Positions 4,758 through 43,237 of a stretch of DNA of 64,000 nt are shown here, one piece after another. How positions within the stretch are numbered: the stretch's first letter is position 1; each line of letters begins with the position of its first letter. Position numbers and translations under genes: made by a program. Under the pieces are notes generated by a model. The model did not search any database. It was given only the letters and a program-made list of their open reading frames with translations, and had not been told where the DNA came from. The DNA is from Plicaturopsis crispa FD-325 SS-3 (lineage: Eukaryota > Basidiomycota > Agaricomycetes > Amylocorticiales > Amylocorticiaceae), in NCBI GenBank assembly GCA_000827205.1, contig KN832557.1:720986-784985 (forward strand). The letters are read 5' to 3'.

Positions 4758-6885
4758 CGTGGCGATAGTCACAAAACACCATCTCTTGCATAGGCGCAAG
4801 TCCATTTTACTGCGTCAACATACCGATTCGTCATAGTCATCAACCGGGCTGTATATGTTATTCTAATGCAGATAATATATCTCGTTACAGTGTAATTACA
4901 ATACCTCGTTCAAGCCCTCCAAATCATGTTTGTACTCCCGGTTTTCCCGTCCACTGACATTGCCTGATATTCAAAAAGGAGGATACGACGACGTACCCTC
5001 TACGCCGTGATGCCATTAACTGTTCTACCGGATTAACCGCTAGAAAATCGAGGCGCGTACATCCAGATCCTTGTGCCTTTGCAAGGTGCTCCGACACGGT
5101 TGATCACGTATACTCCGGAAGCACCTCGCAGGACCACAAGAGACGAAACTGACAGGCCCTTAAAAAGTATATAAGATTCTGGAACATAAATGCGAAGGAT
5201 AAATTCAGCGTACCCCAGAGACTGAAACAGATTTGCCGGGTCAAAGATCCATGCGCAGTAGAATGAAGTTGACTTGGTTGCTTGGCTAGTGGGGGGAGTA
5301 CTGTATTGATTGGGGTCAGCTCCCGGTGTGTTCATATGTGGAGGTCATGGGCAAGTCATGGGTGTAATGTCCTTCCACGACAGGGCGAGCCCCTTACAGC
5401 CATATCGTCTGCATAAGACCAAATGAAACCCAAGTGCTTGCAAGGATGCTCACCTCCAAAAATGGGACCCGAGACTTGAGCAGAATGACCATCCGAGTTT
5501 CGACCGAGAGCAACACTTAGATATCATAAGTGTTGCAGTCTACGTAGAAGATTGTGCTTCTAGTCAAGGGGCCACCCCTTGCTTCTGGTAGTCAAGAGAT
5601 GCACGGAATAGAGTTGAGCGACTTACACTCGACCTAAACACCTCGGTGTGCGAGGCCGCCATCCCTAGCCAGGATCAGCGCCGTCGAAGTCGCCCCTCGA
5701 GTTTGCCGCGGCGTCCCCGCGCTCAACCTTCGTTCATGAGGCTACTTAGCTGCAGCCTCCGCAAAACTTGACATATCGATATCGAGTTGTCAAGGGTGCC
5801 TTCGCAGTTCAAAAACAACCGCGTTAACCTGCGAATCCGGGTGAGGCGTATGCCGTTGACGGACTACGATCGATCGCCGCCCCGGCTGCTGTCAGCTGCA
5901 ATGGACCGATGCCGTACACCTGGCGAACTTGAGTTTAGCGCTGCTGCAATGGGTCGAAGCAAGACCGTCTGCAAAGTCATCACCGTCGCAATGTGCGCAA
6001 AAATACCCACCCACGAGAGATTTTTATAGCGTCGCCGAAAACTAAACTTGGTATCCCCAAGTAGGCCAGCTGCTGAGCAAGTGTTCGAGGAACCCTCCGT
6101 GCGAGGTCTGTCTGTACAGCGGGCCCTGACCCCAATGGAAAGCATGCTCAGCGCTCAATGCCCGAGAATCAGCAGCGAGACGCTGAGGACGCTCGGCACG
6201 GGGAATGGGGGACGATCGGGCCTAAACGATAGCCTCCCCGGCGTTTCAGCATTTCATCGCGGTGAAGCATGTCCTCCGCATGCACTGTGTGCATGCCACG
6301 CAAAAATAAGCAGACCTGCTGACAGCATCTAAGCAAAAATGGCTCACTAGTCGAGTACACAACAAGAACACGTTGCGTATACGCCAGGTATACGCTTTGC
6401 AAGTGCCCTGCAAATCTTGGCAGCCCCGTTTGTCACCGCAGGTCACCGGTCACCGGCCGTACAATCCTCCAGCACAAATCTAGACCGGTGAGTTGACCAC
6501 TGGGGAGCAAGATGTGTCGTTCTAGGCGGTGTAAATCTAGCGCGTTGAGACCGCCCACGACATTCTTGACCAAGAACTCGCCGAGAAGTTTACGATAATT
6601 TGCTTGGAGGTACGTGAAGAACGGAGCAACGGGGAGGATAAAAGACAGAAAAGGCAGAAAAACGGTCTTGGGACACCGAGCGCGGAATTTGATTTGCACT
6701 AGAGCTGTGCGGCGGCACGCACTTTCTCTCTCTTTATACGCCGACGTTGTTTTCACCGTTTCTCAACTCTCTTCAAGACTTCCACCACACGCTCTTTGCT
6801 TTTGGAGAAGACACCCCCCCTCATTACACCCTACCGTCGACCGTAATTTCCCCCCTTCCTCAGCTTTCGAGAGCGGCTCTCTACG
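4758..6885. other. Intergenic, no confident gene
   Basis: About 2.1 kb without a convincing gene. It holds the promoter side of the complete glyoxal oxidase (pyrimidine-rich 6720-6880, with a TTTATAC element near 6730). A 100-codon minus-strand frame (5033-5335) and several short plus-strand frames lack motifs and splice support. The recurrent TTCGTTCATGAGG motif is at about 5733. Confidence 0.5.
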
Positions 6886-8929
6886 ATGCTTTCGACACTG
6901 GCCCTGGGGCTCGCCGTTGCGACATGCGCAGCAGCGCAGTCAGCCGGCAGTTTCGCAGACGGCGGTGACACCGGTGTCAGCGCCATGATGATGTTCCTCG
7001 GAAACGAAGAGAACGTCTACATCCTCGACAAGGTCGAGGGCAACGCCCAACAGATCAACGGTCACCCCGCCTGGGGCTCGGTGTGGAATATTAACACCCA
7101 CCAGAGCACGATCATGGACGTCACGACAAACACCTTCTGTGCTGCCGGTATGCACCTTCCTAACGGCTCGTACTATACCTTCGGAGGAAATGGCGCTGTG
7201 GGGCCAGGTGGAAATATCGGCTCGGTGAAAAGCGCTGGTGGTGCGTCGGCCACGTTCGACGCGACATATCAAGACTACACGGGCAGCAAGGCGGTCCGTG
7301 TCCTCAACCCGTGTACGTCGTCGGATGATATGTCGAGCGACAAGTGCAAGTGGTACGACGACCCCAGCGTGCTCTCCATGCAGAAACAGCGATGGTACGC
7401 CGGTGTCGAGTCCCTTCCTGACGGCAGCGTCGCTATTCTCGGTGGTTTTGTTAACGGCGGCTATGTCAACCGTAATTTCCCCAACACCGACCCCGCGTAC
7501 GAAGGTGGCGCTGCAGAGCCGACGTACGAATTCTTCCCCAGTAAAGGCGATGCGCAGGTCATGCAGTTCATGGTCAAGACTTCAGGTCTGAACTCGTACG
7601 CGCACACCTTCCTCATGCCCTCGGGCAAGATGTTCGTCCAGGCCAATCTGTCCACGATCCTCTGGGACTACACGAACAACGTCGAGACAGATCTCCCAGG
7701 TAATTCCCACGCTACACAACTAGATTTGCCTCAGCTCACCTGCTCTACCAGACATGCCTAACGGTGTCGCTCGAGTGTACCCCGCCTCAGGCGCTACCGC
7801 AATGATGCCGCTGACCCCCGCCAACAACTACGTGCCCACCATCCTTTTCTGCGGTGGCAGCAACATGTCCGCGGATAATTATGGTAACTACGCCAACCCA
7901 GCAATCAACACTTGGGAGCACCCTGCATCGAACGACTGCCACAGCATCACCCCGGAACCTGCTGACGGCTCTTCGCCTCAGTACGTCCAGGACGACGACA
8001 TGCCCGTCGGTCGCACGATGGGCCAATTCATTATTCTGCCTGATGGCAAGATGCTCGTCGTGAACGGCGGGAGGAACGGTACTGCAGGCTACGGACAGGC
8101 GACGGGCGAATCTGCCAGCCTTGCGCAGATGCCATTCTGGGAGTCGTTTGCCGCCGAGCCAGAGGGTCAGCCCGCAATCTACGACCCCTCCAAGCCCGCA
8201 GGCAGTCGGTGGTCCACGGAAGGTCTCGGCACGTCGAACATCGCACGCTTATACCACTCCACCGCCATTCTCCTCCCCGACGCCTCCGTCCTCATCGCCG
8301 GCTCGAACCCGAACTTAGACGTGAACCTCACTTCGCCGTTCCCGACCACCTACAAGGCGGAGATCTTCTACCCGCCCTACTTCTCTGCATCGACGCGCCC
8401 TGTTCCCACCGGCGTACCCAAGCAGATCTCGTACGGCGGTGACCCCTTCGACATCACGCTCCCCGCTTCCTCGTACACCGGTAAGGCCGATGACGCCGCT
8501 GCCAACACCACGGTGGTGCTCAGCCGTGGTGGATTCACGACTCACGCGATGAACATGGGCCAGCGCCACCTGCAGCTTAACAACACGTACACCGTCAACA
8601 ACGACTCGTCGATCACACTGCACGTCGCGCAGGCGCCGCCAAACGCGAACCTCCTCACCCCCGGACCCGCGCTTCTCTTCGTTGTCGTTGCAGGGATACC
8701 GAGCAACGGCACGATGGTGACCGTCGGGACTGGAAGCATGGGCACGCAGCCGACGTCTGCTGCGAGCGTGCTGCCTGCGAGCCAGAACCTGTCCACGGCG
8801 TCTGGCAGCGGCAGTGGCGGCGGTAACTCGAGCTCGAAGAACGGCGCATCTGTATATACGCCGGGATGGATGGGTGTCATGGCGTGTGGATTAACCGCGC
8901 TTGCCGCTCTTTGTACGTCGTTTCTTTGA
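6886..8929 (+). CDS. Glyoxal oxidase, copy 2 (complete)
   Basis: Complete copper-radical oxidase of 663 residues: exons 6886-7699 and 7752-8929, phase-1 intron. Residues 1-18 form a signal peptide ending near AAAQS. Catalytic residues expected from Phanerochaete glyoxal oxidase are all recognisable: Cys85 (NTFCAAGMH) and Tyr171 (QRWYAGVE) for the Tyr-Cys radical cofactor, Tyr439-His440 (ARLYHST), and His536 (GGFTTHAMNM). Kelch-like repeats fill the middle, a DUF1929 domain follows, and the C-terminus has a Ser/Gly linker and a hydrophobic tail consistent with a GPI signal, so the enzyme may stay wall- or membrane-bound. It lies ~5 kb downstream of a near-identical copy with a MYND gene between them. 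Role: extracellular H2O2 supply during lignocellulose decay. The similar galactose oxidase name is possible, but the sequence fits glyoxal oxidase better. Confidence 0.93.
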
Positions 8930-16493: not shown

Positions 16494-17115
16494 CGTTGCA
16501 ATGGTAAGAGCAGGGCACTGTTATGTGTCAAGACTTCCCAGTTGCAAATGCTTGAAATGGGCACCAAGGTCATCCTAGCTAACCAGGACCGTATTCGACG
16601 CGTCGAATCTGCGTGCACCGGCAGATTTGTTGATTCATCATGGGGAGGACAGCCGTGGATTGAGAAAGAGAAATCTTGTGCATCTCAGGACGTTGCAATG
16701 GTAAGAACAGGGCATAGGACTAAGGAACTCACTGTTATTTGTCAAGACTTCCCATTTGCAAATGCCTGAAATGGGCACCAGGGTCATCCTAGCTAACCAG
16801 GACATTCGACGCGTCGAGTCTGCGTGCACCGGTAGATTTGTTGATTCATTATGGGGAAGACAGCCGTGGATCGGGGAAGAGAAATCTTGTGCGTCTCAGG
16901 ACGTTGCAATGGTAAGAACAGGGCATAGGAACTCACTGTTATTTGTCAAGACCTCCCAGTTGCAAATGCTTGAAATGGGCACCAAGGTCATCCTAGCTAA
17001 CCAGGACCGCAATGTTTGACGCGTCGCATCTGCGTGCACCGGCAGATTTGTTGATTCATCATGGGGAAGACAGCTGTGGATTGGGAAAGAGGAATCTTGT
17101 GCGTCTCAGGACTTT
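16494..17115 (+). repeat. Tandem array of ~200-bp units resembling exon plus intron
   Basis: Three units (unit starts at the exon-like part: 16542, 16756, 16960) preceded by a partial unit. Exon-like blocks are 16542-16700 (159 nt) and 16756-16911 (156 nt), both open, both whole codon numbers, and differing by one codon. They encode near-identical 52-53 residue peptides (EMGTKVILANQD...QDVAM). Each ends ATG then a GTAAGA donor-like site; the intervening segments (38, 55 and 48 nt) end in CCCAG, or in the mutated CCCAT before the second block. The third block is broken by a frame change after ILANQD. The unit is either a duplicated exon of a lost gene or a repeat that mimics one. About 250 bp after the array (17116-17366) show no gene. 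Confidence 0.7.
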
Positions 17116-28591: not shown

Positions 28592-29003
28592 CTAAAGTAT
28601 TGCCAGCAGAAAATTAGCGCATGGATAAAGTATGCTGTCAAGCAATGAACCTTTCTTTGAGGCCCTGTGATTGTGATTGGACACGACGGTTATCAAGTCG
28701 TGTTACAGGTATCCGTATGTCCCTGCAGTCCGGTGGCCACCCGGGTGACGCGGATAGGCGCGGGTACCTTTCCCACGCCACCCAATTTGGCGCTCGGTGC
28801 CCCCCTAATACACGCGCTGGTTACTTTGTACCGTAGCGTGAATACACTCGTTTCAAAGTTCACCTTTCGAACAAACCGGACAAAAAGCACGAAAACGACG
28901 TCTAGCGACGCTTCGGGATGCCGCCCTCTGAGACGAACCGCTGGCCGGACTCCTATCCGCCTCCTTGCTCACCGCTCCCATCCTCCTTAGCCACACCCCC
29001 GAC
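28592..29003. other. Divergent intergenic region
   Basis: About 0.4 kb between the divergent F-box gene and the plus-strand unknown gene; presumably holds both promoters. No gene seen. Confidence 0.6.
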
Positions 29004-30116
29004 ATGGATTCGACGGAAGGATTGCCCGAACGCCCGTATACGGAGGCGGACCTGTGAGTATTTGTCTGCTTGCATGCAGAACACTGTACTCACTTCCCGG
29101 GCCGACTTATTCAGGGAGGGGAAGCGCAGGGTCGACCTCATTGCCCTCGTTTATCGGCAGCGCGACAAGTGGATCTACATCGACAAGCGCCACCAGCCGA
29201 TGCGCTCAAAGCGCGATCTCTTGAAGAGAGAACTGCTTGACCCCGACAGAGGATTCACTACCTGGCGCCCCGAGGATCAGCGCGATAACAGTAAAAAAGG
29301 CAGTTCATTGGCTACGGGGAACGCCGTTGCAGACGGTGGATTGAATCCACGAGGTAAGCTCTGCAACAAATATATTACACCCCGCACCTGACCGTTGGGT
29401 ACGCAGACAGTTCTCCTGCAACGGTCTCTGTGGAGACAGTACCAAATGAAGTGCCACGGATGGTCCCAAGCACTGGCCCACAGCTTGGGACCAGCAGTAC
29501 CACCATACTCGCAACCAGCGCAGGACAGGAGGTAAGTACGGTACACTCATGCCCCTCTAGCAATAATATTCATACCTCCGACAGGAAACGGACTCTGTTC
29601 GTACGTCAGTAAGTCCCCGCAAGGCGCCAAGCACGTCCGTCCCTAGCCGTGTCTCCGATACCACAAAGACGGTGATCGAGGAGCTCGTGCGTACCGTAGC
29701 GGACGATCCTGGCTTCATTGAGTTCAGAAGCCGCCGGGGCGTACGCAGCTTCACGGATACAGTGAAGATGTGGCGCTTTGCCGTTCAATTTGTCCACCGT
29801 TTTTCCGGTCGGTACTTGCCTGTCCCGGTGAGTCAATCACTTATCTGCATCTACTGCATAAATTGAAATACGTTATCATGCGCAGGGCATGGGCAACGTG
29901 AAGATGAACAAAAACATCGTATACGGAGCTTTAGGTGTTGGTCGCACATGGATGTCGGACGCTAACAAAGCTATGCGCATCATCGATGTGTACAGTGGGC
30001 ACTCTGCGCATGGGGTGGCCTTCAAGGCTATGCTTGAACGTGTCGACAACGAGGCCAGGGGTGCCGGGCATTTGCTTAGGGATCTTGAAGAGTGGGCGCA
30101 GTCGCACGATCTCTGA
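29004..30116 (+). CDS. Hypothetical protein, five exons, unknown family
   Basis: Exons 29004-29053, 29115-29353, 29407-29531, 29585-29827 and 29886-30116 sum to 295 residues with consistent phases and canonical splice sites. Features: a basic segment after the first intron (EGKRRVDLIALVYRQRDKW, then RHQPMRSKRDLLKREL), a low-complexity Thr/Ser/Pro middle, and a better-ordered C-terminal part (about residues 175-295) with KTVIEELVRTVADDPGF, MWRFAVQFVHRFSGRYLPVP, and a terminal helix RVDNEARGAGHLLRDLEEW. I recognise no domain. It lies directly upstream of the 54-nt module array and ~1.9 kb from the Crypton stop, so it could belong to a mobile element, but nothing in the sequence proves this. A single-copy host gene is the alternative. 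Confidence 0.6.
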
Positions 30117-30494
30117 ATGATAATAGTTACTAATTCTATTGTGTCTGTTTACTGTACGAGTTAATTATCTGTTGTTCAATTACTTGTGTCTCCAAGCTTG
30201 AACATGAAGCTCAAGTGCTCGTTGTGAACATCGTGAACGCATCGAATTTGACGCCCGTGCAAATGCCGCATAAGGTGCGATCCAACAGCAAGTCAAATTT
30301 TCACTCGCGTTCATTGGTCTTGTTCCAGTACCTCGTACTGCCCGATATCACCTTCGCTGATGCTACGCTGGTTCGAGCCCGGACCGCGGGTGTTAGTGCT
30401 GGCCATGATATATTGCGGCGGCAATGAGAGTGCAGCGGCATTGCTAAGACTGCCGTCGTGGAGAGCCTTGTATCTCAGCGAGGAATTGAGCTGG
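30117..30494. other. Left flank of the module array
   Basis: No gene seen. The last ~45 bases before the first 54-nt module already match the array's spacer consensus (GCCTTGTATCTCAGCGAGGA). A stretch GGTTCGAGCCC near 30370 resembles a tRNA B box, but no tRNA fold accompanies it. Confidence 0.5.
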
Positions 30495-31684
30495 GTAAGT
30501 GATTCTTTCTCTTGTCCGCTACGAAGACACTGATGGCGTGTTCCATAGCTGGTGGACCATTCAATCAGTGTCCCCGACGAACTACAGCCGCACTCGAAAG
30601 TGCCTTGTATCTCAGCGGGGAATCATGCTGGGTACGTGATCCTTTTTCCTATCCTTTTTGACGACAGTGACGGTGCTTTGAACAGCTGGCTGGCCATTCA
30701 ATCAGCACCCCCGATCAGCTACAACTGTGCGCATGCAGCATCACGGCACTGAGAACACCGCCGCAAAGTGCCAAGGCTTGTATCTCAGCAAGGAAGTATC
30801 CTGTGTACGCAATTCTTTTTCCTCTTCATTCCGACGTGACTGACGGCGTGTTTAACAGCTGGCTGACTATTTAATCACCACCCCCGATGAGCCACAGTGG
30901 TGCGCGTTATGTGTGCGCGCCATGGTGTTATGTCTCGGAGAGCGCCGCGCAAAGTTGCTCTGTATCTCAGCGAGGAAGTATCCTGGGTAAGCAATTCTTT
31001 TTCCTATCCTTTCCGACATTACTGACAGTGTGTTTCACAGCTGGCTGACCATTTAATCACCACCCCCGATGAGCTATAGCCGTGCGCGTTATATCGCTGA
31101 TCGGAGCGCTTGTATCTCAGCTAGAAATTATGCTGGACAAGTAATTATTTCTCCCGTCCTTTCTGCCGATACTGATAGTGTATTGCATGGCTCGTTGGGC
31201 ATTCAATCAGCAATTCCGATAAATCACAGCCATGCGCGTTATGTCATTGAGAGCACCGCCGCGCAAGTGCCTTATATCTTAGCGAGGAATTATACCGGGT
31301 AAGCAATTCTTTTTCCCACTGTTTTCAACGAGACTGACGGTGTGTTGCACGACTGGCTGACCATTCAATCACCGACCCCAATGAGCTACAGCGGTGCACA
31401 TTATGTGCGCGCGTTACGTCTCGGAGAGCGCTGCGCAAATTGTCCTATATCTCAGCAACAATAGCCCGGGTAAGCTATTCTTTTTTCTATCCTTTTCGAC
31501 GTTACTGACGGCGCATTGCACAGCTGGCTGACCATTCAATCACCACCCCCGATGAATGACAGCCATGCATGATATATCACCAACAGTCCTGCCATCAAGT
31601 GCGTTGTATCTCAGTCATCAGTTATGCTGGGTAAGTAACTCTTTTTCCCCTGGTTTTCGACATCACTGACAGTGTGTTGCACAG
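30495..31684 (+). repeat. Tandem array of eight 54-nt intron-like modules with exon-like spacers
   Basis: Eight modules, each exactly 54 nt: 30495-30548, 30632-30685, 30805-30858, 30987-31040, 31137-31190, 31299-31352, 31470-31523, 31631-31684. Most begin GTAAGC/GTAAGT/GTACG, have a Cys-like T-tract (TTCTTTTTCCTATCC), a branch-point-like CTGAC near offset 36-40, and end CACAG/AACAG. The fifth lost both ends (AC..GG) and the sixth lost the final AG. The spacers are related to each other but vary in length (83, 119, 128, 96, 108, 117, 107). They share a start CTGGCTGACCATTCAATCA, a middle CCCCCGATGAGCTACAG and an end TATCTCAGCGAGGAA..TGG. The first three spacers are open in one frame and encode a related peptide (LxDHSIxTPDELQ...CISAR), though later ones have stops. 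No known family recognised. Confidence 0.85.
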
Positions 31685-31971
31685 CTTGCGGACTATTCAA
31701 TCAGCTCCCCCAACGAGCCTTGACCATGCACCCCATACTATCAAGACCGTCGCTGTCGCCTTATACGCAAAACGGACATGACGGACAGCAGAATACTAAT
31801 TCCTATTTGTTCTCCCTGTCCGTTCCGTCCTACACTAGCAACTACTGTAGTACGACTTGGATGAGCACAGGCAAACAATTGATTAGACGTATAGTAAAGT
31901 TATAGTACTACGATAAGCATTACTACTAAGTACAGACTCGGCCCAGTATTGTATAATATGTGAGGTGAATA
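31685..31971. other. Right flank of the module array
   Basis: The array homology fades by about 31735. The rest, up to the Crypton stop codon, is AT-richer and shows no gene. Confidence 0.5.
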
Positions 31972-34119
31972 TTAGATGCGTGTACGGCTGTAAGATTCTG
32001 CTGCTGCAAGTGCTTCGCTGTGCCCCGCTCCATTGCCCTGGGAAAGATAGTCGGAGAATTGGCGATGAGAAAACTTACGCTGGCTGGTCCGTCCATAGGT
32101 CTGCTCAATGAAACCGAGCGCAAGATCAACATCCCATCGTGGCTTCCTAGAGAGCGCATCGACGAGCTTAACAATCTTGCTTCGTCGGCCACCGTTAGTT
32201 TTTTGTGCGGCATTATTGCGTCTCCACCTTGCGCCCCATTTCTCCATCAAGTCGCGGACTGGTAGGTATCCTCCGAGCCCATCTGCCCACTCGATCCAGA
32301 CCTCCGCGATTGTCGTGACCGGCTGATACACATAGTATGGCAGCCAGTCACCACCTGTCCACTCCCATTGGTGTGCACGGAGACGGGACTCGCCGTATTT
32401 TTTAGTGAGAGCGGCCCACGTGTTGCGCTGAGCGTCAAGCTCCCATGTGGTTGAGCTTGCCGGTGGTATAAGAGCAGAAGGGGGTGTGATTATCGGCATA
32501 GGCAACACCGGGCTCGACGGGCTCAGCAGAGCGGCTTGCGGACTTGTTGTCGAAGTCGAGATAACGGCACCCGATCTGGAAGGTACATTGTCGGAGAAGT
32601 GAATGGTGATGTTACTATGCACGGTTGGGCTCGAATTGGGAGCAAAGGATAACGAGGGAGCGGGGTATGGTTCAAGATTCGGCGGCACGGTGACAGACGG
32701 CGGGGATGGAGCAACAGTTTTGGGGGGTTCCGAGACTACACAAAAGTTAACTTTATTGTACGGAATGAGAAAGGTACAAGCCAACCTTTGCGACGCTTTT
32801 GGCGTGGATTCTTTGATGACATTGCTGAATCAAACATGCCATGAATCTCAGACATGCGTGCCTCGACCTGGGCCCACCGCGCAGCGTTCGTGTCACGCTC
32901 CTGTTGCTGCTGCAGCGAAGCATTTGTGAGAACGCCCTCAAGCGTAGCGACGAGGTGGTGGGGTAGCTGTTCGAGTGCAAGTCGTGCTCCTTCTTCAGCA
33001 GAAGCGACGGCGGCAAGCGAGGAAGCGGAAAAGTGACGGAACTCGGGTGTATTGAATGGTGCATATTTGAATAGTGTGTAGCTCGGGCACTGAGCAAACA
33101 GCACAGCGCAGTCTTGAACAATGACGAGGCGCAACCATTTGAGGAGCCTAAGAAACTGCCGGAGCGCAATATCCGTCGCAAGCCTGTTGGCTTGCTCACG
33201 GGCTTCCAGTGCTACTTCCTCAGCCTCGATCCACGGAAACACCTGCATAAGAAGGTCCGAGGAAGGATCTTGTGGTATTTATTAGCTGAGAAGCGACTTC
33301 GACATGATAAAATACTTACTCAAGCAATCTCTTGCTAGAAAGTAATTCTCGGGCTTGTTCGCATCAAACATGGCGGCCCCGAGAAGGGCATCCACAGGAA
33401 ACGCACGGTCATAGCAGTTTCTATAAGAACCCGATACAGACCATCCGCCTAGGATCTTGGTTCCCTCGATGCTAGCACCGTGCGTCCGAGCTTTCTGTGC
33501 GGCAAGAGGGCGTAACGCGTGAGTTTTCTTGACAATGTGTATGCCGTTGCTGGCATGCAGGATATTGATACGGTCTAAATGGTCTGCAGATATCTGGGTG
33601 AGTGTCGGCATTGGTACGGCTATGATAAAACTTAGACTGACTGCTGTATGTCATCGGAACCGACGGTTTCTTCGAGTAAAAGACATGGTGGTCATACCAC
33701 TCACGATAGCCAAACTCTCCATAGCCTGGCTTCGAGAAGTCGGGTGCAAAGCGAGGGACAGGGTGGCTTTGGATATGAAAATGCGAAAACAGAAGCATAG
33801 CGACCGCTCCGACTGGGCAGAGATTGACAAGGCGACTCCGCAATGCTCCGTGTTCGTCCACCCGACCCGTCTGGTTGTGCTTAGCATTATTTGCGAGCAT
33901 ACCAAGGACCTTTAAGTGTCGAGTCAGTGACAATACCGGTAAGCACTTGATAGTATATGCACGTACTGGGATATCTTTACCGACACCGCGGTCAATGAGG
34001 GACACATTCCCCATGAACATGTCCGATAAGAGGAGCATTCGAGTACTCTCTCCGCGAAAGGCTGTGGCCGCAGGAAGAAGAAGCATAGCGCGATCGCGTA
34101 TGCTGATCGAGGTTTGACC

Positions 34120-34225
34120 ACTCAGGATGGGCGTGCGAGTGCGTCACGCTATAGTACGCATTTGCTCAATTTCTGGGGGGAGGTCCGGCGCCGCGTGAGG
34201 GAAACTCAACCGGCGCCGGGTCCTG
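34120..34225 (-). repeat. Split direct repeat B2
   Basis: 106-bp terminal repeat, identical as read to 34386-34491. It begins (plus strand) ACTCAGGATGGGCGTG and ends CGCCGGGTCCTG. It forms the 3' terminus of the retrotransposon next to Crypton sequence. Confidence 0.92.
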
Positions 34226-34241
34226 AAGGGATGGTGGGTGG

Positions 34242-34385
34242 GCAGAGAAAACGAGAGTCGTCGAGGAGACGATTAATAGGGGACAAGGTTGTGGTATGAG
34301 AACAAGAGGCGAGTGCTTAGTCACCCTCCCGCACGCATCTTGAGTCCCCGAACTCACAGGGACAAGTCTCGTCTGAGTTCGGCCA
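34242..34385 (-). repeat. Split direct repeat A2
   Basis: 144-bp repeat identical as read to the 5' terminal copy A1 at 40142-40285. It is directly fused to B1, giving the B1-A2 junction expected of split direct repeat elements. Confidence 0.92.
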
Positions 34386-34491
34386 ACTCAGGATGGGCGT
34401 GCGAGTGCGTCACGCTATAGTACGCATTTGCTCAATTTCTGGGGGGAGGTCCGGCGCCGCGTGAGGGAAACTCAACCGGCGCCGGGTCCTG
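34386..34491 (-). repeat. Split direct repeat B1
   Basis: Internal 106-bp copy, matching B2. It lies just downstream of the recombinase stop codon (34593) and abuts A2. Confidence 0.92.
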
Positions 34492-34592
34492 TGAGTGTGT
34501 CGAGGGTAGGCGAAGGGCAAACCCGCTGCAAGACGAAGGCGCTGACAAGCCTTGCGAAGACACACCCAGACCAGAAAGCAGAGGAAAGCAGT

Positions 34593-35799
34593 CTATTCGG
34601 AACGAGCTGTGTGCCGTCGAGAGCTGCGAACATCCGCGCGTAGACGGGAAAAGAACTCCTTGACTGTCGCGAGCCGTTCGACGTGCATCGGAATGAGCGT
34701 CTCCAGTTCCCTCCAGTAGCGCAGAAAGGCGTCCGACGTCCAACGTCCCATCGACTTCACGATCTCGGGGTCGACGCCTCGCAGGAGCAACTCCGTCGTG
34801 CCCCCAATCCTGAAGCCATGCCCCTGAAATCGCACGAAGCCATGAGCAGCCCAGATTCGATTGCACACCAGGAGGAGCCGTTTCTTCGTGAGGCAAGTGA
34901 AACCGGATTTCGATTTGAAGGAGAACAGAGGGATGTTCGGCGGCGGGTTGTTCACAAGGAGGTGGTTTTCGAGCGCGTCAATGGGGTCGGATGCCCCGTT
35001 CTGACGACAGATCATGATAATATCTCCATTAGACTTGCGAGTCTTCGACCACGGCAGGTGTAGGGGACGTGATCCGTCCTCGGTCGTGGGTTCGCTGAGA
35101 GACGAGCGCATGGGGATGTACCCACCGTCGAAAGAATTCGCCCAGGGCGAGAATAGCTCGCCTAAGCGAGCCTGACCCCACAGCGCAGACGTTGCGGCAG
35201 CTAAGACGCACGCGTCCATCGGCACAGCAAGATCGAGTTCGCGCGCCAGGACCTCAAGCATAGCGCTCGTTACCGGAGGACGAGGGGGACGGCCCTTGGG
35301 GGCAAGAGCGTGGACTCCCCGCAGGGTTTGCCGGAGGCGGATGCCCATCTCCCATGGCACGTTGTTCGTGATGTGCCATGCCCTGACACCAGACACGCAG
35401 TTCTGGGTGGAAGTCTTTTGGTAGAGTCGGGCGCGAGAGGCGACAAATGCGCACACTAGAGTTTCCGAACGCAGGCAGTCGACTCTCGAGTGGGACACCA
35501 TGTTCGTCGCAGAACGAGCAGAAGGCAGCAACTCCCGAAGAGTAACCTGCCTGAGTGTCCGGCGCCCAAGACTCCTTAATGACAGACTCGGTGGCGAGTA
35601 GGACACTTGAGGGCAACGTAAACGCTGAATCGACGCCCGCATATTTGGAATCTGTAGGGCGGCGGATATGACGAAATGTAGAGTGGGCAGGGACCAGGCG
35701 ATCCCGAATGTGGCGCACAGGATGCGAAGTACGGCTTGCGTGACGGGCATGCAGTATGTCGCCCTGGAACGTATTCAAGGCAGGTATTGAGCTCGACAT
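34593..35799 (-). pseudogene. Ngaro tyrosine recombinase, one frameshift
   Basis: Integrase of the retrotransposon. The likely start is MSSSIPALNTF at 35799. The first ~105 residues run to GVPLESRLPA, then one extra base near 35480 moves the frame; the rest reads to 34593. The catalytic core is wholly in the second frame and looks complete: first Arg in WGQARLGELF, H-x-x-R in GHGFRIGGTT, Trp in MGRWTSD, Tyr in LRYWRELE. The N-terminal part carries the SAM-like core-binding helix (APDTQAGYSSGVAAFCSFCDEHG). The shift could be an inactivating mutation, a sequencing error or programmed frameshifting; a single shift in an otherwise clean frame and perfect terminal repeats suggests it is recent. 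Confidence 0.85.
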
Positions 35800-35955
35800 G
35801 GTGGTGGGTGAGAGATAAAACCCGAGAGCACACTGCCGCAAATACCACACTCCTGCGGCTGACCGCAACTGCGCGCGGTCAATATTCAAATATAAAACCA
35901 CGAGTTCTCCCTTATGATTATATGGAAACAGGTTAAGGTACGACAGTGAGGTATG

Positions 35956-37640
35956 CTAAGGGTGGTAAGTCCGCACAAACGGCGCGAGACGGGAGGGGAC
36001 GCGGAAAGTAGGTTTAAGACGCAAATTTGTATGCGGAAAGACTCCCCGAGAAGGCCCATCAGCAATGTTGTCCGCTGAAGCCACGTATTCGCAGGACAGC
36101 TGAAGGGACGCCCCATTGAGCAGGCTCGTGATGCGCTGCAGCGAAGCATTTTGGTGAGCATTACGGGACACACCACCTTTCAAGGCGCCCACAACACCCT
36201 GGTTGTCCGAACGGATCAGCAGGTGGCAGGTGTTGTATCCGGAGCTGATCAGGAAACGAGCGGCGAGTTCGACAGCAATCATCTCAGCCCAGCCGATGTC
36301 CCTGCCATCAGTCTTCCATCCAGGCAGAAGCTGCCAGGCGAACCATCTCCCTTCGATGACCAGCCCGATGCCCCAGCCCGTCGAAGCATCAACGTAGATT
36401 GAAAGAGGCGAGACAGGCATGGGGCTTTGGAGGATATGGCCGCAGAATGGCTTAGCCAACTCAAGGCGCCACCAGGCAAGATCGCGCAAGGCGTCGTGAG
36501 AAATCCCGTGGCGCATGAAGCTTGACGAATTTGAGTTGAAAGAGGACGTAAGGCGATAGAGGGAAGGCATACGGGAGCGCCCGGTAGGAACTGCATAGCA
36601 GCAGTGGTTAAGCGTTCCCACAAGGGACTCGCAGTCCTTCCGCGATACCTTCGACCCCGCAGTCCAGCCTTCGAGCTTCGTGATGAATTTCGCTTTTTTG
36701 GCGGCAGTTATTTCGACAGAGCGAGCTGATATGTTCCACAGGAATCCGATGTATGTGAACTCGTTTCCGAAGGCCGTGTGCTTGGCCGGATTCCACGGCC
36801 AGCCGAGGCGCTCCGCGATGTGAAATATATGACGGGCGCGAATGTCATAACCGTGCGGCATGCCGTCGGCACCAACCACAGAAGGCGATCGGAAGAAAAC
36901 GAAATCATCCACCCACTTCAGAATGTTGTGCATCCCATAAGAGGCGAAGATGCGAATGATTGCATCGGCCACGCGCCCGAATATGCCGCACGAGCTCGCC
37001 GAGCCGAAGCACACGTTGTGGTCGATGTAAAACTCGCCGTTCCAAGACACGACGGTGTGACATTGGTCTTCACGAGCAACAGGTATGCGTCGGAACGCAG
37101 CATCGACATCAAAGACCGCGGCTTGGGTGCCGACGGGAGCGTCGAGGATGAACGCAGCGCACATCGCAAACGTGCTCCAAGAGCCGGCAAACTTGTTCTT
37201 GTCGATGTGGTAATTAACTGAGAAGATGTGGGGATCATTACGAGGAAACGAGAAATCTTGTACGAGCCGATATTTGATTACGGTGCCGTTTTTCAGAACG
37301 ACACCAAGGGGGGATGAGCGGAAGGGACCGAGGAAGGCTTCGCATTGTCGTAGTGTGAAGGGGCCGCTATAGCGGCCAGCGGTGACTTCGGAGAGTATGT
37401 ACAGCTCAATAGCTTTGGGGTGTTGTATCGCGGAGGTATGATTAGGCGGAGTGTATGTATTAGATATGGTGGCGGAGGTGCCTAGTTTAAAACCGAAGCG
37501 GAGACCTAATGGTACATCTGAAAACTCGTCGAGGCAGCCAGCCGCCTCGAGCTCATACTCCCAGGCCGCCCAGCGGAGGGGGGTGACTATCCAACGGGCA
37601 TCAGCAGGCACGGCACTTCTGAGCCCCGTGCTCAGATGCC
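35956..37640 (-). CDS. Ngaro reverse transcriptase / RNase H
   Basis: An open frame runs from 38076, but the part read as pol starts about 37640, where the preceding CCHC frame ends, and stops at 35956 (~560 residues). RT motifs: AVFDVDAAFRRIPV with the motif A Asp, FGSASSCGIFGR, and the catalytic pair in KWVDDFVFF (VDD in place of YxDD, normal for this order). RNase H follows with its acidic residues in IYVDAST.WG, AEMIAVELA, RSDNQGVVGAL and ADNIADGPSRG. The frame overlaps the upstream CCHC frame at its stop (TGC TGA), so expression probably needs ribosomal frameshifting or reinitiation. No stop or shift is seen inside the domains. Function: copies element RNA into DNA in the nucleus or cytoplasmic particle. 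Confidence 0.9.
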
Positions 37641-38599
37641 CCGCACAGGGAACAGACGTGTGCATTCTTGCAGCCTCCGAAGGTACAGCCCCCGCTGTTG
37701 AAGTTGAAGCAGACGTGCTTTTCGGGGGCTGAGCCAGGGACGTGGTATTGACCGTTGGTACGGGCAAGGAAGTAAGGTCGTTCGCGGTTTGAGCACATAC
37801 GGGAGACGTGGTCGCGCGCCGAGCAGATGAAACAGCGCCCGACGAGACCTCGGGAGGACCCAACAGTCGTTGCCGCTTTTCCACGACCCTCGGCGGACGA
37901 CCGAAAGGAAGAGACAGTGGCAGGCAGAGACCGGGGCAGACTTCCCGGCCCAAAGGACCGTCGAGCAGAGACAGGGTAGCCACGAGCGTCGTGGGTACCC
38001 AAGGAGATGCCACGGATATGCTCAAACCGGATACGGTCGAAAATGCCTTGCTGCCAGGTATGCGGCCAGAAACCATGGACGTCCTGCAGGTGCATCTTGC
38101 GGATAGTGAGCTCGTATAGAATGTAGACGCCGGGGATGTCGTAGAAATCGGAGAAACTCGTGATCATGTGGAACAGGCGCTGGTAGGATGTGGAAAGACG
38201 GATCGCGTCGATGGTGGGGTAAAACATCTCGATAATGCGGATGAGACGCGGGTATGATTGCATAAGCTCTTCAGTAGAAAGGTACAATTCCCGAGAAGCA
38301 TCGAGGGGCGCTGTACCTACGCGGAGGACAGAATCGTTGTCTCCGAGTTGGAGGACATTGCGGGACGCGGTCGCGCGAAAACCAGCCCGACAGGCATTGT
38401 TGGTAAGGCTAGTCAGCGGAATATGGCTATGCCACCCCGCCTTCATCTTTTCGACGACAGCAGGTGGGTCCACGAGCGCATTGGCGTCGAGGTAGATGTC
38501 ACGCTCATCGGTGGGGAGACGGTGACCGGTAGGTGCAGCCGCAGAGCCACTACCCGAGGGCGCAGGCGGGCAGGCTGCATGCAATACATCAATAATCAT
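37601..38599 (-). CDS. Ngaro ORF2: Gag-like protein with CCHC zinc knuckles
   Basis: 332 residues starting MIIDVLHAACPP. The first ~200 residues are helical and capsid-like (YPRLIRIIEMFYPTIDAI, YQRLFHMITSFSDFYDIPG). A Ser/Arg linker precedes three Cys/His clusters: CFICSARDHVSRMC (C-x2-C-x4-H-x4-C), a CFNFNSGG..CKNAH CCCH-like finger, and a final CSLCGASEHGAQKC CCHC knuckle just before the stop. These would bind element RNA. It starts 47 bp after the stop of ORF1 and overlaps the RT frame at its end, consistent with polycistronic translation and a gag-pol frameshift. Confidence 0.8.
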   Translation of the reverse strand: MIIDVLHAACPPAPSGSGSAAAPTGHRLPTDERDIYLDANALVDPPAVVEKMKAGWHSHIPLTSLTNNACRAGFRATASRNVLQLGDNDSVLRVGTAPLDASRELYLSTEELMQSYPRLIRIIEMFYPTIDAIRLSTSYQRLFHMITSFSDFYDIPGVYILYELTIRKMHLQDVHGFWPHTWQQGIFDRIRFEHIRGISLGTHDARGYPVSARRSFGPGSLPRSLPATVSSFRSSAEGRGKAATTVGSSRGLVGRCFICSARDHVSRMCSNRERPYFLARTNGQYHVPGSAPEKHVCFNFNSGGCTFGGCKNAHVCSLCGASEHGAQKCRAC

Positions 38600-38646
38600 T
38601 CCGACTGACGTGTAGACTGCAATACGAGATTATAGAAAGGCAGAAA

Positions 38647-40084
38647 CTAAAGCCTGAACAGGCTTAGAAGCTCAGGCAGCACACTGGGGTCATCCAAAAA
38701 GTCGAACTGGGGGATGTAGAGCACTACGAGCGTAATCGAGAATCGGAGGTTTGTAGCATCGAACATGGCCGGACCACTAAGCAGAAGGACAAAATCACGG
38801 GTGTCCGCCACAGGTCTCAGTGCGGACGCCGAATTGGGCAGGCCGAAGGCAACCTCTCGCTCAGCGAAGGGAAAGGCTGAGAGGACGCGTCAGCCCTGAG
38901 GACGACATAGGTGCGTAGTGGCACACAAAATAGACGGCACGTCTCGCGGAATGGCAAGCAAAGTGCGTAGTGGCACAAAGGCACGGTAAAGTAGGGATCG
39001 CGAAGTGGCGCACGGAAATTGGACCGTGCGGAATGGCACAATGGAGCGACAGTGCGGAGTGGCACGAAAACGGAGCGACAGTGCGGATTGGCACGAAAGA
39101 TGTACGTCTAAAGGCAGTGTAGTGACGCTTACCTTGGCGAGGCGCGCGCGCAGGCATTGCGTCGTCACGACCGAAGCGAGCTGTACCGCGGACAGGCGGC
39201 CTATTGTCGAGCGCCTCAAGGCGCCGGCGCTCGTTGCCTAAGCGCAGTGTGGCGTTGAGAGCTTGCTGGTTGCGGACGTATTGATCTTGCGTGCCAGGGG
39301 AGGCGCGCATGAGCAGGTCATATACGTCGTCGGAGACGCCGGTCTGCAGTAGCTCGTAGAGCTCGCCAGAGATGGCGATGTCTTGATCAGGCGAAGCCGA
39401 GCGAGCAGCAACTGATGGGCGAGGTCCATCTATGAAGGAGTCGTGGGAGGCGAAGCGAGATTGAGGCACACTATCACGATCTTGATGGCTGTGGAACAAG
39501 CCGTAAGATGGGGACACGGGATGTTGTACTGGCGACGCAGATGGGCGGAATCGTAATCCTCCGCCGACAGAGCTACCGCGCGCGCCAGAGGGTCCGGCAA
39601 CGGGAGAGGACTCCTGAACGCGGCGCTTGCCGAGCACCTTGGCGGTACGCCTCTCTTTAGACGACGGACGGCGAGCAGCACGACGGACGGGCGTTGCGGG
39701 GGTGGGTGTAACAGGAGAAGTAGGCCGGAACTCAGGAGGGGGCGCTAGAGGGCGGGGAATGAAGTTGAAAAGGTTCTCGCGAGGTGGTGGTACCGCTTGA
39801 GGAGGAGGTTGGCGGAGGGCGACGCGACCAGGGACGACAGGCGGCACCATGGCGGCGGAGCCGGGCGGGATGCGAATCCGCCCCGCAGATGGTCCTTCCG
39901 CCGCGTTTTGGGCCAAGGCACTCGCTACGGTCTGTGTGCCTTGCGCTGCGGGTGTCGCGTCACCGAGCTCGTAGTCGACTTCCTCGTCATCGAGCGTGTC
40001 GGAAGCCGCAGCGTGCTCCTTGTTGGCAGCGCCATCGGCCGTCGAGTGCTCGACACTTTTGCCCGAACGAAGTTTGCGGGTCAT
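38647..40084 (-). CDS. Ngaro ORF1, spliced, Pro/Ser-rich
   Basis: Starts MTRKLRSGKSVEHS at 40084, just inside repeat A1. Exon 1 (40084-39133) ends at GTAAGC; exon 2 (38876-38647) begins after CTCAG, in phase, and gives 393 residues in total. Exon 1 is disordered (PRPLAPPPEFRPTSPVTPTP; basic KERRTAKVLGKRR), with a helical segment ISGELYELLQTGVSDDVYDL near its end. Exon 2 adds a hydrophobic, better folded piece (ADTRDFVLLLSGPAMFDA, LVVLYIPQFDFLDD). Without splicing the frame runs into repetitive sequence. Probably an accessory or N-terminal Gag protein; no domain recognised. Confidence 0.65.
38877..39132 (-). repeat. Minisatellite inside the ORF1 intron
   Basis: The 256-nt predicted intron holds about five degenerate copies of a GTGCGNANTGGCAC-type unit (plus-strand positions near 38911, 38952, 39030, 39053 and 39083) with irregular 25-75 nt spacing. 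No coding sense fits it. Confidence 0.65.
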
Positions 40085-40141
40085 GGTGGAATGTTGAAGA
40101 GTGTAAAGTATAAGGACCGTTGTATCAAAGGCAACGAAACA

Positions 40142-40285
40142 GCAGAGAAAACGAGAGTCGTCGAGGAGACGATTAATAGGGGACAAGGTTGTGGTATGAG
40201 AACAAGAGGCGAGTGCTTAGTCACCCTCCCGCACGCATCTTGAGTCCCCGAACTCACAGGGACAAGTCTCGTCTGAGTTCGGCCA
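40142..40285 (-). repeat. Split direct repeat A1
   Basis: 5' terminal 144-bp repeat of the retrotransposon (minus-strand reading), matching A2 without a visible difference. It begins, in element orientation, with TGGCCGAACTCAGACG directly after Crypton sequence, and probably contains the promoter. Confidence 0.92.
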
Positions 40286-41430
40286 CCCAGTGACACCGAG
40301 TAGGTGCCGAGAACATCTCGTCAGCTCATCCGTCGTGTAAGTATCTAGATTATATTAGCATTGGCAACACAAAAAGACGCAAATGACATACCGGAGGAGG
40401 TGCCGGCAGCCTTAAGAGCCTGTGACTTTCTAATGCGCTCCCCTTCGTTCTTCTTAGCCGCCGATTCGAAAACACGAATCCGAACATCACCACGGAGACT
40501 AATCTGTGCGTCCGGAATATCACGGTAAAGGTGCTGGTGGTGAAGACGTTTGTGCTCGAGGGCGGATATGATCTGCTTGATGTGCTCCTTTCCTACTGAC
40601 GAGCCGGCAACAGACTCTCCAACAGCACCGCGTTTTTTCTTGTTTCACGGTGAGCATATGACAACCAATGAGAGTTCACAAAAGCGTACCTTTTCACGCG
40701 TGGTCTCGTACTTGAGAAACATGGCTACCTTCGAGACAATGATCGGGAAGGCGGGGATAGCGATTTTTGACAAACCGCTCGCCACCGCGGATGCTTGGTC
40801 GGCGTCCCACCACGTCTCGTAAGCTATGACGTGCCTGGCATACGTATCCGAGGTCTGCTTGTTCCCTTGTTCTTGCTCCATCAGCTGTATGCGCAAATCT
40901 TGCGACTGTGCTTCGAGACGTTCGATAGAATGCGAAAGAAGAGCCGCATTGGAAACCGCAGAAACGGCAGGATATATGGCAGAAGTTGGTGCTAGGGTCG
41001 AGGTGGGGAGCGGTGTCGTATAAGATTCAGGCCCCGAGCTTAAGACGGACGGCAGCGACGCGATATCCTGCATGTGCGAACACTCATGCCAGTCCGTATC
41101 CCACCCTTCGATCCCATTCAACATTGATGCACCTTGCGAAAACATGCTCAAGTCGCCATCCGTATCAAGCGGAAAACAGTTACGAAGACTGTCGAGAGAG
41201 GGCTGGGTCGCAGGCTGCCTGGCATGGGTCGTTAAATTGCGGGGAGCACAAGGGGAATCGCCGAGAAAGCCCTCCCAGCTGCCCGAGAAGTCGCTCGGAG
41301 CTTCACTTGAGTGTTTACGGTGAACGGGGGCCAAGAGCGACCCCGACGACAAGCGCTGGCGTTTGTAGGCAAGCGGAGACGGCTGTGCCCACGGCGTGAC
41401 AAGGATTGGGCGAGGAGGAGTGGTGGGCAT

Positions 41431-43237
41431 TGCTGTTGTCCGGTAGCATCAGTGATAGCACGCAAAAAACGAAATCAATGGCACATACTTCGTAAGAATA
41501 ATCAGGACCCGATGAATACAATCCAGACGTCTGAATACGGGCCAGACGTCTGTGGTACGTCGACAGTCTAGCAAACAATCGTATCAGAATGATTTCAACG
41601 GCGCAATCCGAGCACAGAGCACATACCTCAAGTGAATATGCGCCTGCGTCTTTTGACCTCGGGTCGATGTCGGCCGTTCCTGGAAGGCCGCAGCGGTAGC
41701 GGGTAGCACCTAGCAGAGTAAATAATGTCAGTCCAGTGCTCGCAATATCCTGGAGAGTCGTGTCTGCGCATCGACGCGTCGATGCGTACTGCACCCAGGT
41801 TGGATGCAAGGCTCGCACTCGCACCTCAACAGGCCTCTGGGTCTGCGAACCGCGAGTGCAACAAAATGACAAAGAGAGTAAGCAAACATACCTATTCTAT
41901 GGTGTCGGGTGGTCAACGAGAGCACGGTGGACGGCAGTTGGAGCTCGGAGACCAAGCGGGCAAAGCAGTCAGTCGACGGAAATTGGAGATCCGGCCACCA
42001 ATTTGCAGCGGCCACCGTCAGCGAAGTCGTGGTCAGTCCTAGAAGCCAGATAACACCGAGGAACGTGGAGGACGAGACGCGAGGGAGGTCTCCGTTGACA
42101 ATTCGAAGCAAATATATTGTGAATTATCAGTGAATTTGCGAGTGATTGGAGTCGAGGTCGCCGTCGTCGGGCAAGAGCGGGCAGGACAGGGAGCAGCGCA
42201 GCATTTTTTCCGTCGAGAGTCACGGATACGATTGGGATTGCGGACGGTATGGACGTTAAGAACAAAAAGTACGCTACGGAGACGTTCAACAAACCTGCGC
42301 GTTGGCTTCGAATAGACGCCCGCGGACGAATCGGACACAATGGGTGGCGCACGAGCACCGGAAAAACTTTTGCCTCGGGGCGAGCCGCGAGCCGAACCGC
42401 TGATGGGCTTGGGCCCCTTCTGGGCCTTCCCCCCTCGATCTGCTGGGTATTTGGGCGGTGACGCTTCTGTGCTTACGCGGGGGTCACCGGCAAGGTCACC
42501 AGGCCGGGCTGGTACCCGCACGTATGCTCTATGTAGCCTCTGCGCGCGTGTATTCAGTCAATCCACGCCTGTTTAATCCAGAATTTACTTTGTACTTACC
42601 AAGGATGAAGCGATGGAGTCTTTCAAGAGAACAAAAACGACGAATTGAACATCGTCATAACGCTTTCAGGCGAAAGCATCGAGCTTACGGAGTAGGGCTT
42701 TGTCGGTTGGTCGTAATTGAGCAGCTTGTGTCCGGCTAGACTATACCTCCCCGTGTACCATATAGGGTCAATATGGTGCTTGCAAACGCAGGATGGGTAT
42801 CAAAAGCTTTCGATGAAAGCGAAAGCCCGGCTGAAGACAAGCTCAGGCTGCCTTGGCCGTACAGCGTACCTATGAAAACTACCATCAAAATCAGTCAAGA
42901 AATCCGACCAAAACGCACTACTTGGTACCAACAGCGGGAATGAAAGGGCCTGGTGGACAGCAATGTTCTCCTGCTATATTTCGTGATGTTTTCCTTTGGG
43001 CATCGACTGACTTGAGAGAAAGAGGCGGTAGAGCAAGTCGAGTTCAAGGTGGCTGACGGACGGGCCGACGGCGTCTGCCGAAAGCGCAGTAGCATTTCTG
43101 ACCAGCTCATCATCCTGGGCGCCAGCTACTATTGCTGCTCGCCGTCGTTCATATACCATTCTTACTTCACGATTTCGCCCTTAATATTCTCGTAAAACTA
43201 TTCACTTCCTCGCCTTGGACCGCCCGAAACATATGCA
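41431..43237. other. Crypton 5' flank and intergenic region
   Basis: No gene could be supported. Minus-strand frames at 41315-41872 and 42039-42521 contain Arg/Pro-rich sequence and plausible splice sites but no motif; they could be 5' untranslated exons of the Crypton. Two copies of a GCTTTC..GAAAGC motif lie near 42661 and 42807. The right end holds the Vps74 promoter. Confidence 0.45.

What the first reader, a model, noticed from the sequence alone, without database searches (positions are those of the whole stretch)
30495..31684. Eight intron-like modules of exactly 54 nt in tandem, separated by spacers of variable length
Seen directly: eight segments start mostly GTAAG/GTACG, carry a T-rich tract and a CTGAC box at the same offset, and end mostly CAG. 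All eight are exactly 54 nt, even the fifth (both ends mutated) and the sixth (final AG mutated). The spacers between them are homologous but vary from 83 to 128 nt. In an ordinary decaying tandem repeat, indels should hit modules and spacers alike; here they fall only in the spacers. That points to selection for, or recent copying of, the 54-nt module, or to a transcript whose units are each spliced. The first three spacers are 3n+2 long and open in one frame (LxDHSIxTPDELQ...CISAR), so full splicing would rotate the frame at each unit. Possible meanings: introner-like element copies, an exon-shuffling array, a structural non-coding RNA, or a remnant of a fast-evolving repeat gene. I know no described family that matches.
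Basis: partly seen in the sequence, partly recalled or inferred. Interest (0 to 1): 0.85.

Follow-up and report, generated by a model that had tools for sequence, protein, structure and literature searches.

The report
Intron-like tandem repeat inside a transposon
Eight repeated intron-like segments of equal length are real, but they are the middle part of longer repeat units that multiplied inside a fungal transposon, and nothing here shows that they are spliced or that they jump on their own.

Summary
In detail: eight modules of exactly 54 nt at 30495-31684, spacers 83-128 nt. The array sits between two convergent genes of a Crypton-type transposon (28716-42535, interrupted by a nested retroelement). 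A second copy on contig C1 carries seven homologous units, all with 54-nt modules. The constant length is not special to the module: the 29 nt before and 34 nt after it are nearly as free of indels, and length changes fall in each unit's distal linker. The module changes at 8.6%, its flanks at 5.0% (p=0.07), the linker at 13.3%. Substitutions in the 117-nt core are triplet-biased (25:14:8, p=0.009), as in coding sequence, yet the frame now carries stops and shifts. One unit was gained or lost by in-register crossing-over. All 16 genomic matches to the unit reach beyond the module, against introners. Best account: a degenerating tandem duplication of an exon-intron-exon-like cassette (54 = 3x18) inside a transposon; splicing is possible but untested. 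A surprise: two boxes of the unit recur 67 nt apart at four other loci, over interiors only about 28-61% identical. That is unexplained.

The parts
28716..42535 (.). Crypton-type transposon holding the array (7.65 kb net of the nested insert); short TATGT at both ends
   Evidence: sharp ends of identity with C1:3402446-3410494; termini printed; lengths
29567..30116 (+). 3' part of the second ('partner') gene, convergent with the recombinase gene; no Pfam match
   Evidence: relatives on C1 and C5
30466..31718 (+). tandem array of 8 units (137-182 bp from unit to unit), first unit to end of the last 117-nt core
30495..30548 (+). 54-nt module 1 (GTAAGT...TAG)
30632..30685 (+). 54-nt module 2 (GTACGT...CAG)
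30805..30858 (+). 54-nt module 3 (GTACGC...CAG)
30987..31040 (+). 54-nt module 4 (GTAAGC...CAG)
31137..31190 (+). 54-nt module 5 (ACAAGT...TGG, both ends changed)
31299..31352 (+). 54-nt module 6 (GTAAGC...CGA, 3' end changed)
31470..31523 (+). 54-nt module 7 (GTAAGC...CAG)
31631..31684 (+). 54-nt module 8 (GTAAGT...CAG)
31972..33278 (-). C-terminal part of the tyrosine-recombinase-type gene: GCR1_C (ORF 31972-32829) and NDC10_II (ORF 32736-33278)
33472..34119 (-). further exon of the same gene (NDC10_II, just below the Pfam cut-off), up to the nested insert
   Evidence: insert border
34120..40285 (-). nested retroelement with split direct repeats (106 bp and 144 bp, each pair 100% identical), absent from the C1 copy

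Best explanation
The array is an internal tandem duplication, carried in the space between the two convergent genes of a Crypton-type (tyrosine recombinase) transposon, of a cassette that looks like exon end - short intron - exon start. Shown: the units are homologous over a core of about 117 nt (29 + 54 + 34) joined by linkers of variable length. Shown: the two transposon copies hold colinear arrays whose units match one to one (W1-K1 to W5-K5, W8-K7), so the array most simply predates their split (no tree was built). Shown: unit K6 is a mosaic of W6 and W7 joined inside the module, so unit number changes by in-register exchange. Shown: in those pairs substitutions and indels are rarer in the core than in the linker, and core substitutions are triplet-biased. 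Inferred: the constant 54 nt is part of a core-wide constraint against length change, most simply reading-frame constraint on a coding cassette in which 54 = 18 codons keeps the frame whether or not the segment is removed. Inferred: the array is now degenerating, with stops, shifted linkers and mutated splice-like ends. Not shown: transcription or splicing.
For: Same array in the paralogous transposon; NDC10_II and GCR1_C in the - strand gene. Core against linker in six orthologous pairs: 47 substitutions and 0 indels in 702 aligned nt against 32 substitutions and 5 indels in 241 nt (indels per substitution p=0.014). Triplet bias 25:14:8 (p=0.009), with pN/pS 0.41 and the fewest stops of six frames in one + frame; a permutation of column variability gives p=0.038 for the core (its first 6 columns left out) and 0.003 for the part up to the end of the module. 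The recombinase ORFs show the same kind of bias, 43:20:11 and 12:1:2. K6 mosaic. C9 single unit, also 54 nt.
Against: The favoured frame has TAA at GTAAG in 8 of 15 units and other stops, and unit lengths are not kept in frame between copies. The triplet test was found after looking at all frames; one - frame gives a similar ratio (0.35, 13 stops), and the downstream flank alone shows no bias in column variability (p=0.95). The two partner-gene pieces tested had only 6 and 1 substitutions, too few to calibrate. Splice-like positions changed less than the rest of the module (3 of 78 against 25 of 246, p=0.11), which leans towards working introns. No homologous protein was found for the longest + strand frame inside the array.
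Confidence: 0.55

Rival explanations
1. The modules are working spliceosomal introns of a transposon transcript (a long 3' region of the + gene, or a separate non-coding or fast-evolving coding gene), each unit being spliced.
For: GT in 12 of 15 and AG in 12 of 15 modules, CTGAC/T in 12 of 15; exon-like flanks less changed than the module (5.0% against 8.6%, p=0.07) and splice-like sites less changed than the rest of the module (p=0.11). The C9 copy keeps GTACGC, TACTAAT and CCAG at the same offsets although its interior shares only 35 of 57 positions with the array.
Against: Four of 15 modules lack a GT or an AG end (W5, W6, K5, K6); triplet bias inside the module (16:8:4, p=0.018) is not expected of an intron; relatives at C28, C4:904 and C19 with the same box spacing have GTACAA and, by eye, no clear branch site.
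Confidence: 0.22
2. Two short boxes at fixed distance (CTGGGTAC, then 67 nt from its first base CATTCAATCA..CCCCG) are the functional thing: a cis element read by a protein, borne at several loci, multiplied in this transposon. The module length follows from the fixed box spacing.
For: Spacing 67 in 18 of 19 rows of a scan that allowed 60-75; 6 of the 18 are outside the two arrays. In a genome pattern search allowing 21 spacings, 4 of 11 independent non-array places had exactly this one (p=0.001 if spacings are equally likely). Interiors between families share 16-28 of 57 positions with no gap, while the boxes are far better kept. In the window and at C4:904 the pair lies between convergent ORF ends.
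Against: C46 has spacing 71; C19:476430 has only a degenerate box 1 by eye and lies beside a sulfate-permease exon. Of the array units 8 of 15 have GGGTAA and 3 GGGTAC. Interiors are weakly but significantly alike in several pairs, so they may simply be old homologues. No binding protein is known.
Confidence: 0.13
3. A plain neutral satellite-like tandem repeat; the equal module lengths are chance plus shared descent.
For: The zero-indel count in modules alone is not significant against the linker (p=0.065); tandem arrays inside transposons are common (recalled).
Against: Core substitutions run at half the linker's rate (flanks against linker p=0.0005; module alone against linker p=0.10), with triplet bias; 54 nt is also kept in the C9 copy with interior identity of 35 of 57.
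Confidence: 0.08
4. Introner-like elements: the 54-nt module itself was copied eight times into existing sequence.
For: Intron-like ends and one fixed length.
Against: Flanks on both sides are homologous from unit to unit; all 16 matches in the genome extend beyond the module (a lower bound; the module alone was not a query).
Confidence: 0.02

Closest known systems
CryptonF transposons (Kojima and Jurka 2011, PMC3212892; 12 of 24 matching passages seen)
   Same: Tyrosine-recombinase-type protein with a GCR1_C domain, short terminal direct repeats (4-6 bp in the paper, TATGT here)
   Different: Here a second, convergent gene and an internal tandem array of intron-like units; the 12 passages seen mention no such array
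Introner-like elements of fungi and other eukaryotes (PMC4457414, PMC9860276; listing and abstract starts only)
   Same: Intron-like short repeated module
   Different: No stand-alone copy was found in other genes; the repeated unit is larger than the module
Exitrons / intronization (exitrons recalled; the abstract start of PMC3629103 mentions intronization)
   Same: A 3n-long segment that looks both intron-like and triplet-biased
   Different: No transcript evidence, and the host frame is broken

Membership tests
CryptonF transposon (the host element) | Tyrosine recombinase domain related to NDC10 | tested here: met
   PF16787 NDC10_II, E 2.7e-13 on one ORF and 2.1e-5 (below cut-off) on another; catalytic residues not checked
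CryptonF transposon (the host element) | GCR1_C domain | tested here: met
   PF12550, E 8e-12
CryptonF transposon (the host element) | 4-6 bp direct repeats at both termini | tested here: met
   TATGT at both ends of two copies with unrelated flanks; 5 bp alone is weak
CryptonF transposon (the host element) | No terminal inverted repeats | tested here: inconclusive
   Longest inverted match between the two end stretches is a subterminal 9-mer, GCGGGTACC
Introner-like element | Same intron sequence inserted in many unrelated genes | tested here: not met
   16 matches to the unit, 15 in the two arrays and one single unit, all reaching beyond the module (lower bound, module alone not a query)
Functional spliceosomal introns | GT...AG ends with a branch-site-like box | tested here: inconclusive
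   GT and AG together in 11 of 15 modules, CTGAC/T in 12 of 15
Functional spliceosomal introns | Spliced junctions in RNA | not testable with these tools
   no RNA data
Structured non-coding RNA | Stable fold or known family | tested here: not met
   z from -1.08 to +1.92 for seven copies folded, two of them array units; Rfam: only sub-threshold hits

The most novel reading that the evidence does not exclude
In this fungus several otherwise different loci, at least one of them a Crypton-type transposon, share one two-box element with a fixed 67-nt spacing whose interior can drift far in sequence but not in length. In one Crypton lineage it was amplified into an array of 8 (7 in the sister copy), and its interior evolved spliceosomal-intron signals there without changing length, which would be an intron arising in place (intronization) inside a multiplied cassette.
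Probability: 0.12. Interest if true: 0.7.

Novelty: new variant of a known kind. Interest (0 to 1): 0.38.

Why it matters
If it is a decaying cassette, the case warns that equal-length intron-like modules can arise from ordinary tandem duplication in a transposon. If the fixed two-box spacing or in-place intron birth is real, the paired arrays (8 and 7 units, with relatives at the same spacing elsewhere) would let one watch coding-like sequence turn into intron-like sequence at constant length, a step of intron origin that is usually only inferred.

Tried and rejected
Rfam on the array region and on four loci with relatives: only sub-threshold hits, taken as chance. RNA folding of seven copies: no excess stability. 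Box 1 and box 2 as a Pol III A and B box, or tRNA-like: compared only by eye with recalled consensus, a poor fit, dropped. DNA searches with the C4:904 copy and the C46 copy found only themselves, so the dispersed copies have no close relatives at that sensitivity. The C4:904 copy as a coding exon: its 60-residue open frame matched nothing else in the genome. Protein search with the longest + strand frame inside the array: 1 candidate, none scored; the recombinase ORF gave 1 hit of 1540 candidates, so that database may be poor in fungal proteins and the negative is weak. Pattern scan of viral contigs as a control: 35 matches, 0 at the canonical spacing; 12 of the 35 share another spacing, 2 nt longer, not followed up. 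C1:2164954 was fetched as a possible further copy and judged doubtful. The C28 neighbour was guessed to be a tyrosine recombinase from recalled motifs; Pfam and a PDB sequence search with one piece did not support it, so it is not claimed. Literature: four searches; no paper on an intron-like array in a Crypton was seen in their listings. One paper was seen in passages (PMC3212892), the others only as listings and abstract starts.

Full report
Observation. The eight modules are as described: starts at 30495, 30632, 30805, 30987, 31137, 31299, 31470 and 31631, each 54 nt, with spacers of 83-128 nt. They are homologous copies, not eight independent coincidences.

Where it lies. The window is part of a 33.2-Mb genome in 49 contigs. 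A DNA search of that genome with the array found a second array on C1 at 88% identity and one weak single match on C9. Comparing the 64-kb window with 70 kb of C1, identity runs only from 28716 to 42535, at 92-96% in its four main blocks, except for 34120-40285, which is missing from C1. The shared stretch has TATGT at both ends and unrelated flanks. Its - strand gene matches NDC10_II and GCR1_C in Pfam; the literature gives a tyrosine recombinase plus GCR1_C for CryptonF transposons and derives yeast Cbf2/Ndc10 from them (PMC3212892, passages). A second gene on the + strand ends at 30116; its three ORFs have no Pfam match. The array lies between the two converging gene ends. A more distant relative on C5 has the same two convergent genes (39% and 36% amino-acid identity); the roughly 300 bases between the matches show no array by eye, and the box-pair scan of that locus found nothing.

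The nested 6.2-kb insert has pairs of 100% identical direct repeats in split order (34120-34225 = 34386-34491; 34242-34385 = 40142-40285) and a reverse-transcriptase ORF (RVT_1, below the Pfam cut-off). It looks like a young DIRS/Ngaro-type element (the type name is recalled). It interrupts the element upstream of the recombinase exons listed.

Anatomy of the units. Aligning 8 window and 7 C1 units shows a core of 117 nt: 29 nt before the module, the module, and 34 nt after it. In the 15 units the core has one indel (2 nt, W7, upstream of the module). The rest of the unit, 20-65 nt in the 13 units that have a following unit, varies in length.

Rates. Six orthologous unit pairs (W1-K1 to W5-K5, W8-K7; W6, W7 and K6 left out because K6 is mosaic) give these substitution counts: upstream flank 10 of 174, module 28 of 324, downstream flank 9 of 204, linker 32 of 241. 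Indel events are 0, 0, 0 and 5. Tests: indels against substitutions, core versus linker p=0.014, module alone p=0.065, flanks alone p=0.15; substitutions, flanks versus linker p=0.0005, module versus linker p=0.10, module versus flanks p=0.07. The module is not better protected than its flanks.

Triplet bias. The 47 core substitutions fall 25:14:8 (third, first, second place of the favoured frame; p=0.009), and within the module 16:8:4 (p=0.018). The frame that fits (codon GGG TAM) has pN/pS 0.41 and the fewest stops of six frames; one - frame has 0.35 but 13 stop-bearing codon pairs against 6. Column variability over 15 units agrees up to the end of the module (p=0.003) and for the core (p=0.038), but not for the downstream flank alone (p=0.95). 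The transposon's recombinase ORFs show 43:20:11 and 12:1:2, so purifying selection is visible at this divergence; the two partner-gene pieces tested had only 6 and 1 substitutions. Against present coding: TAA at GTAAG in 8 of 15 units, other stops, and unit lengths that are often not multiples of three and change between copies.

Intron signals. GT in 12, AG in 12, and CTGAC/T in 12 of 15 modules; GT and AG together in 11 of 15. Positions critical for splicing changed less (3 of 78) than the rest of the module (25 of 246), p=0.11. This neither proves nor excludes splicing.

Dynamics. K6 equals W6 on its 5' side and W7 on its 3' side, with the switch inside the module near the CTGAC box. One unit was thus lost from C1 or gained in the window by in-register exchange.

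Dispersed relatives. A search with 130 nt of unit found 16 places: 15 array units and the C9 copy, all extending beyond the module (the tool's counts are lower bounds). A mismatch search for box 2 gave 92 matches against 31 for the reversed pattern; 15 of the 92 are array units. Of the other 77 I read 14; the remaining 63 were not read. Scanning all loci then held except L001 and L002 showed box 1 (CTGGGTAC) 67 nt before box 2 at C9:1278729, C28:105956, C4:904074 and three tandem units of 168 bp at C19:514336-514753, and at 71 nt in C46:9461. Of the 14 read, 6 thus have box 1 (C9, C28, C4:904, two at C19, C46), one (C19:476430, beside a sulfate-permease exon, PF00916) has a degenerate one by eye, and 7 have none in that scan (C13, C15, C7 twice, C2 twice, C11). 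Of 19 rows found with an allowed spacing of 60-75, 18 had 67; 12 of the 18 are array units and 6 are not. A gap pattern allowing 21 spacings gave 22 matches, 10 in the arrays; of the 12 others 5 had the canonical spacing (4 independent loci of 11, p=0.001 if spacings are equally likely; control 7 matches). Two further gap patterns gave 10 and 11 matches against 0 and 0 for the control, and a third 11 against 1; their matches at the canonical spacing are the same loci. Interiors of different families share 16-28 of 57 positions (C9 with the array 35 of 57) without a gap, some significantly more than shuffled, so they are probably old homologues. What keeps the spacing is unexplained. In viral contigs the same two boxes occur 35 times, none at this spacing.

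Judgement. The best account is a degenerating tandem duplication of a cassette inside a Crypton-type transposon; the equal module length is a by-product of core-wide constraint plus shared descent. Working introns are the main rival. The two-box family is the part worth following.

Noticed in passing
window 34120-40285: Nested retroelement with split direct repeats (two identical pairs of 106 and 144 bp) and a weak RVT_1 match; absent from the sister transposon, so it probably inserted recently.
   Followed up: partly
window about 28760 and about 42515: A 9-nt subterminal inverted match GCGGGTACC near both ends of the Crypton-type element; it contains GGGTAC, as box 1 does. Could be a binding site or chance.
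   Followed up: no
L057 (C19:510000-515234) 4324-4790: Three tandem 168-bp units with the same box pair at 67-nt spacing near a contig end: an independent tandem amplification.
   Followed up: partly
L051 and L055 (C4:904139, C28:105956): A third shared stretch, AGCACAGAGACAA, lies 50-53 nt after the start of box 2 in both (read by eye); in L051 it is close to the end of a DUF6589 ORF on the - strand.
   Followed up: no
window 703-1872 and 7750-8919: Duplicated gene pieces at 92.6% identity; by recalled sequence look, glyoxal-oxidase-like.
   Followed up: no
window 16516-17112: 211-bp tandem repeat, 2.8 copies.
   Followed up: no
C1:3403728-3403994: A run of N between two partial copies of the partner gene in the sister element: an assembly gap or a withheld stretch.
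   Followed up: no
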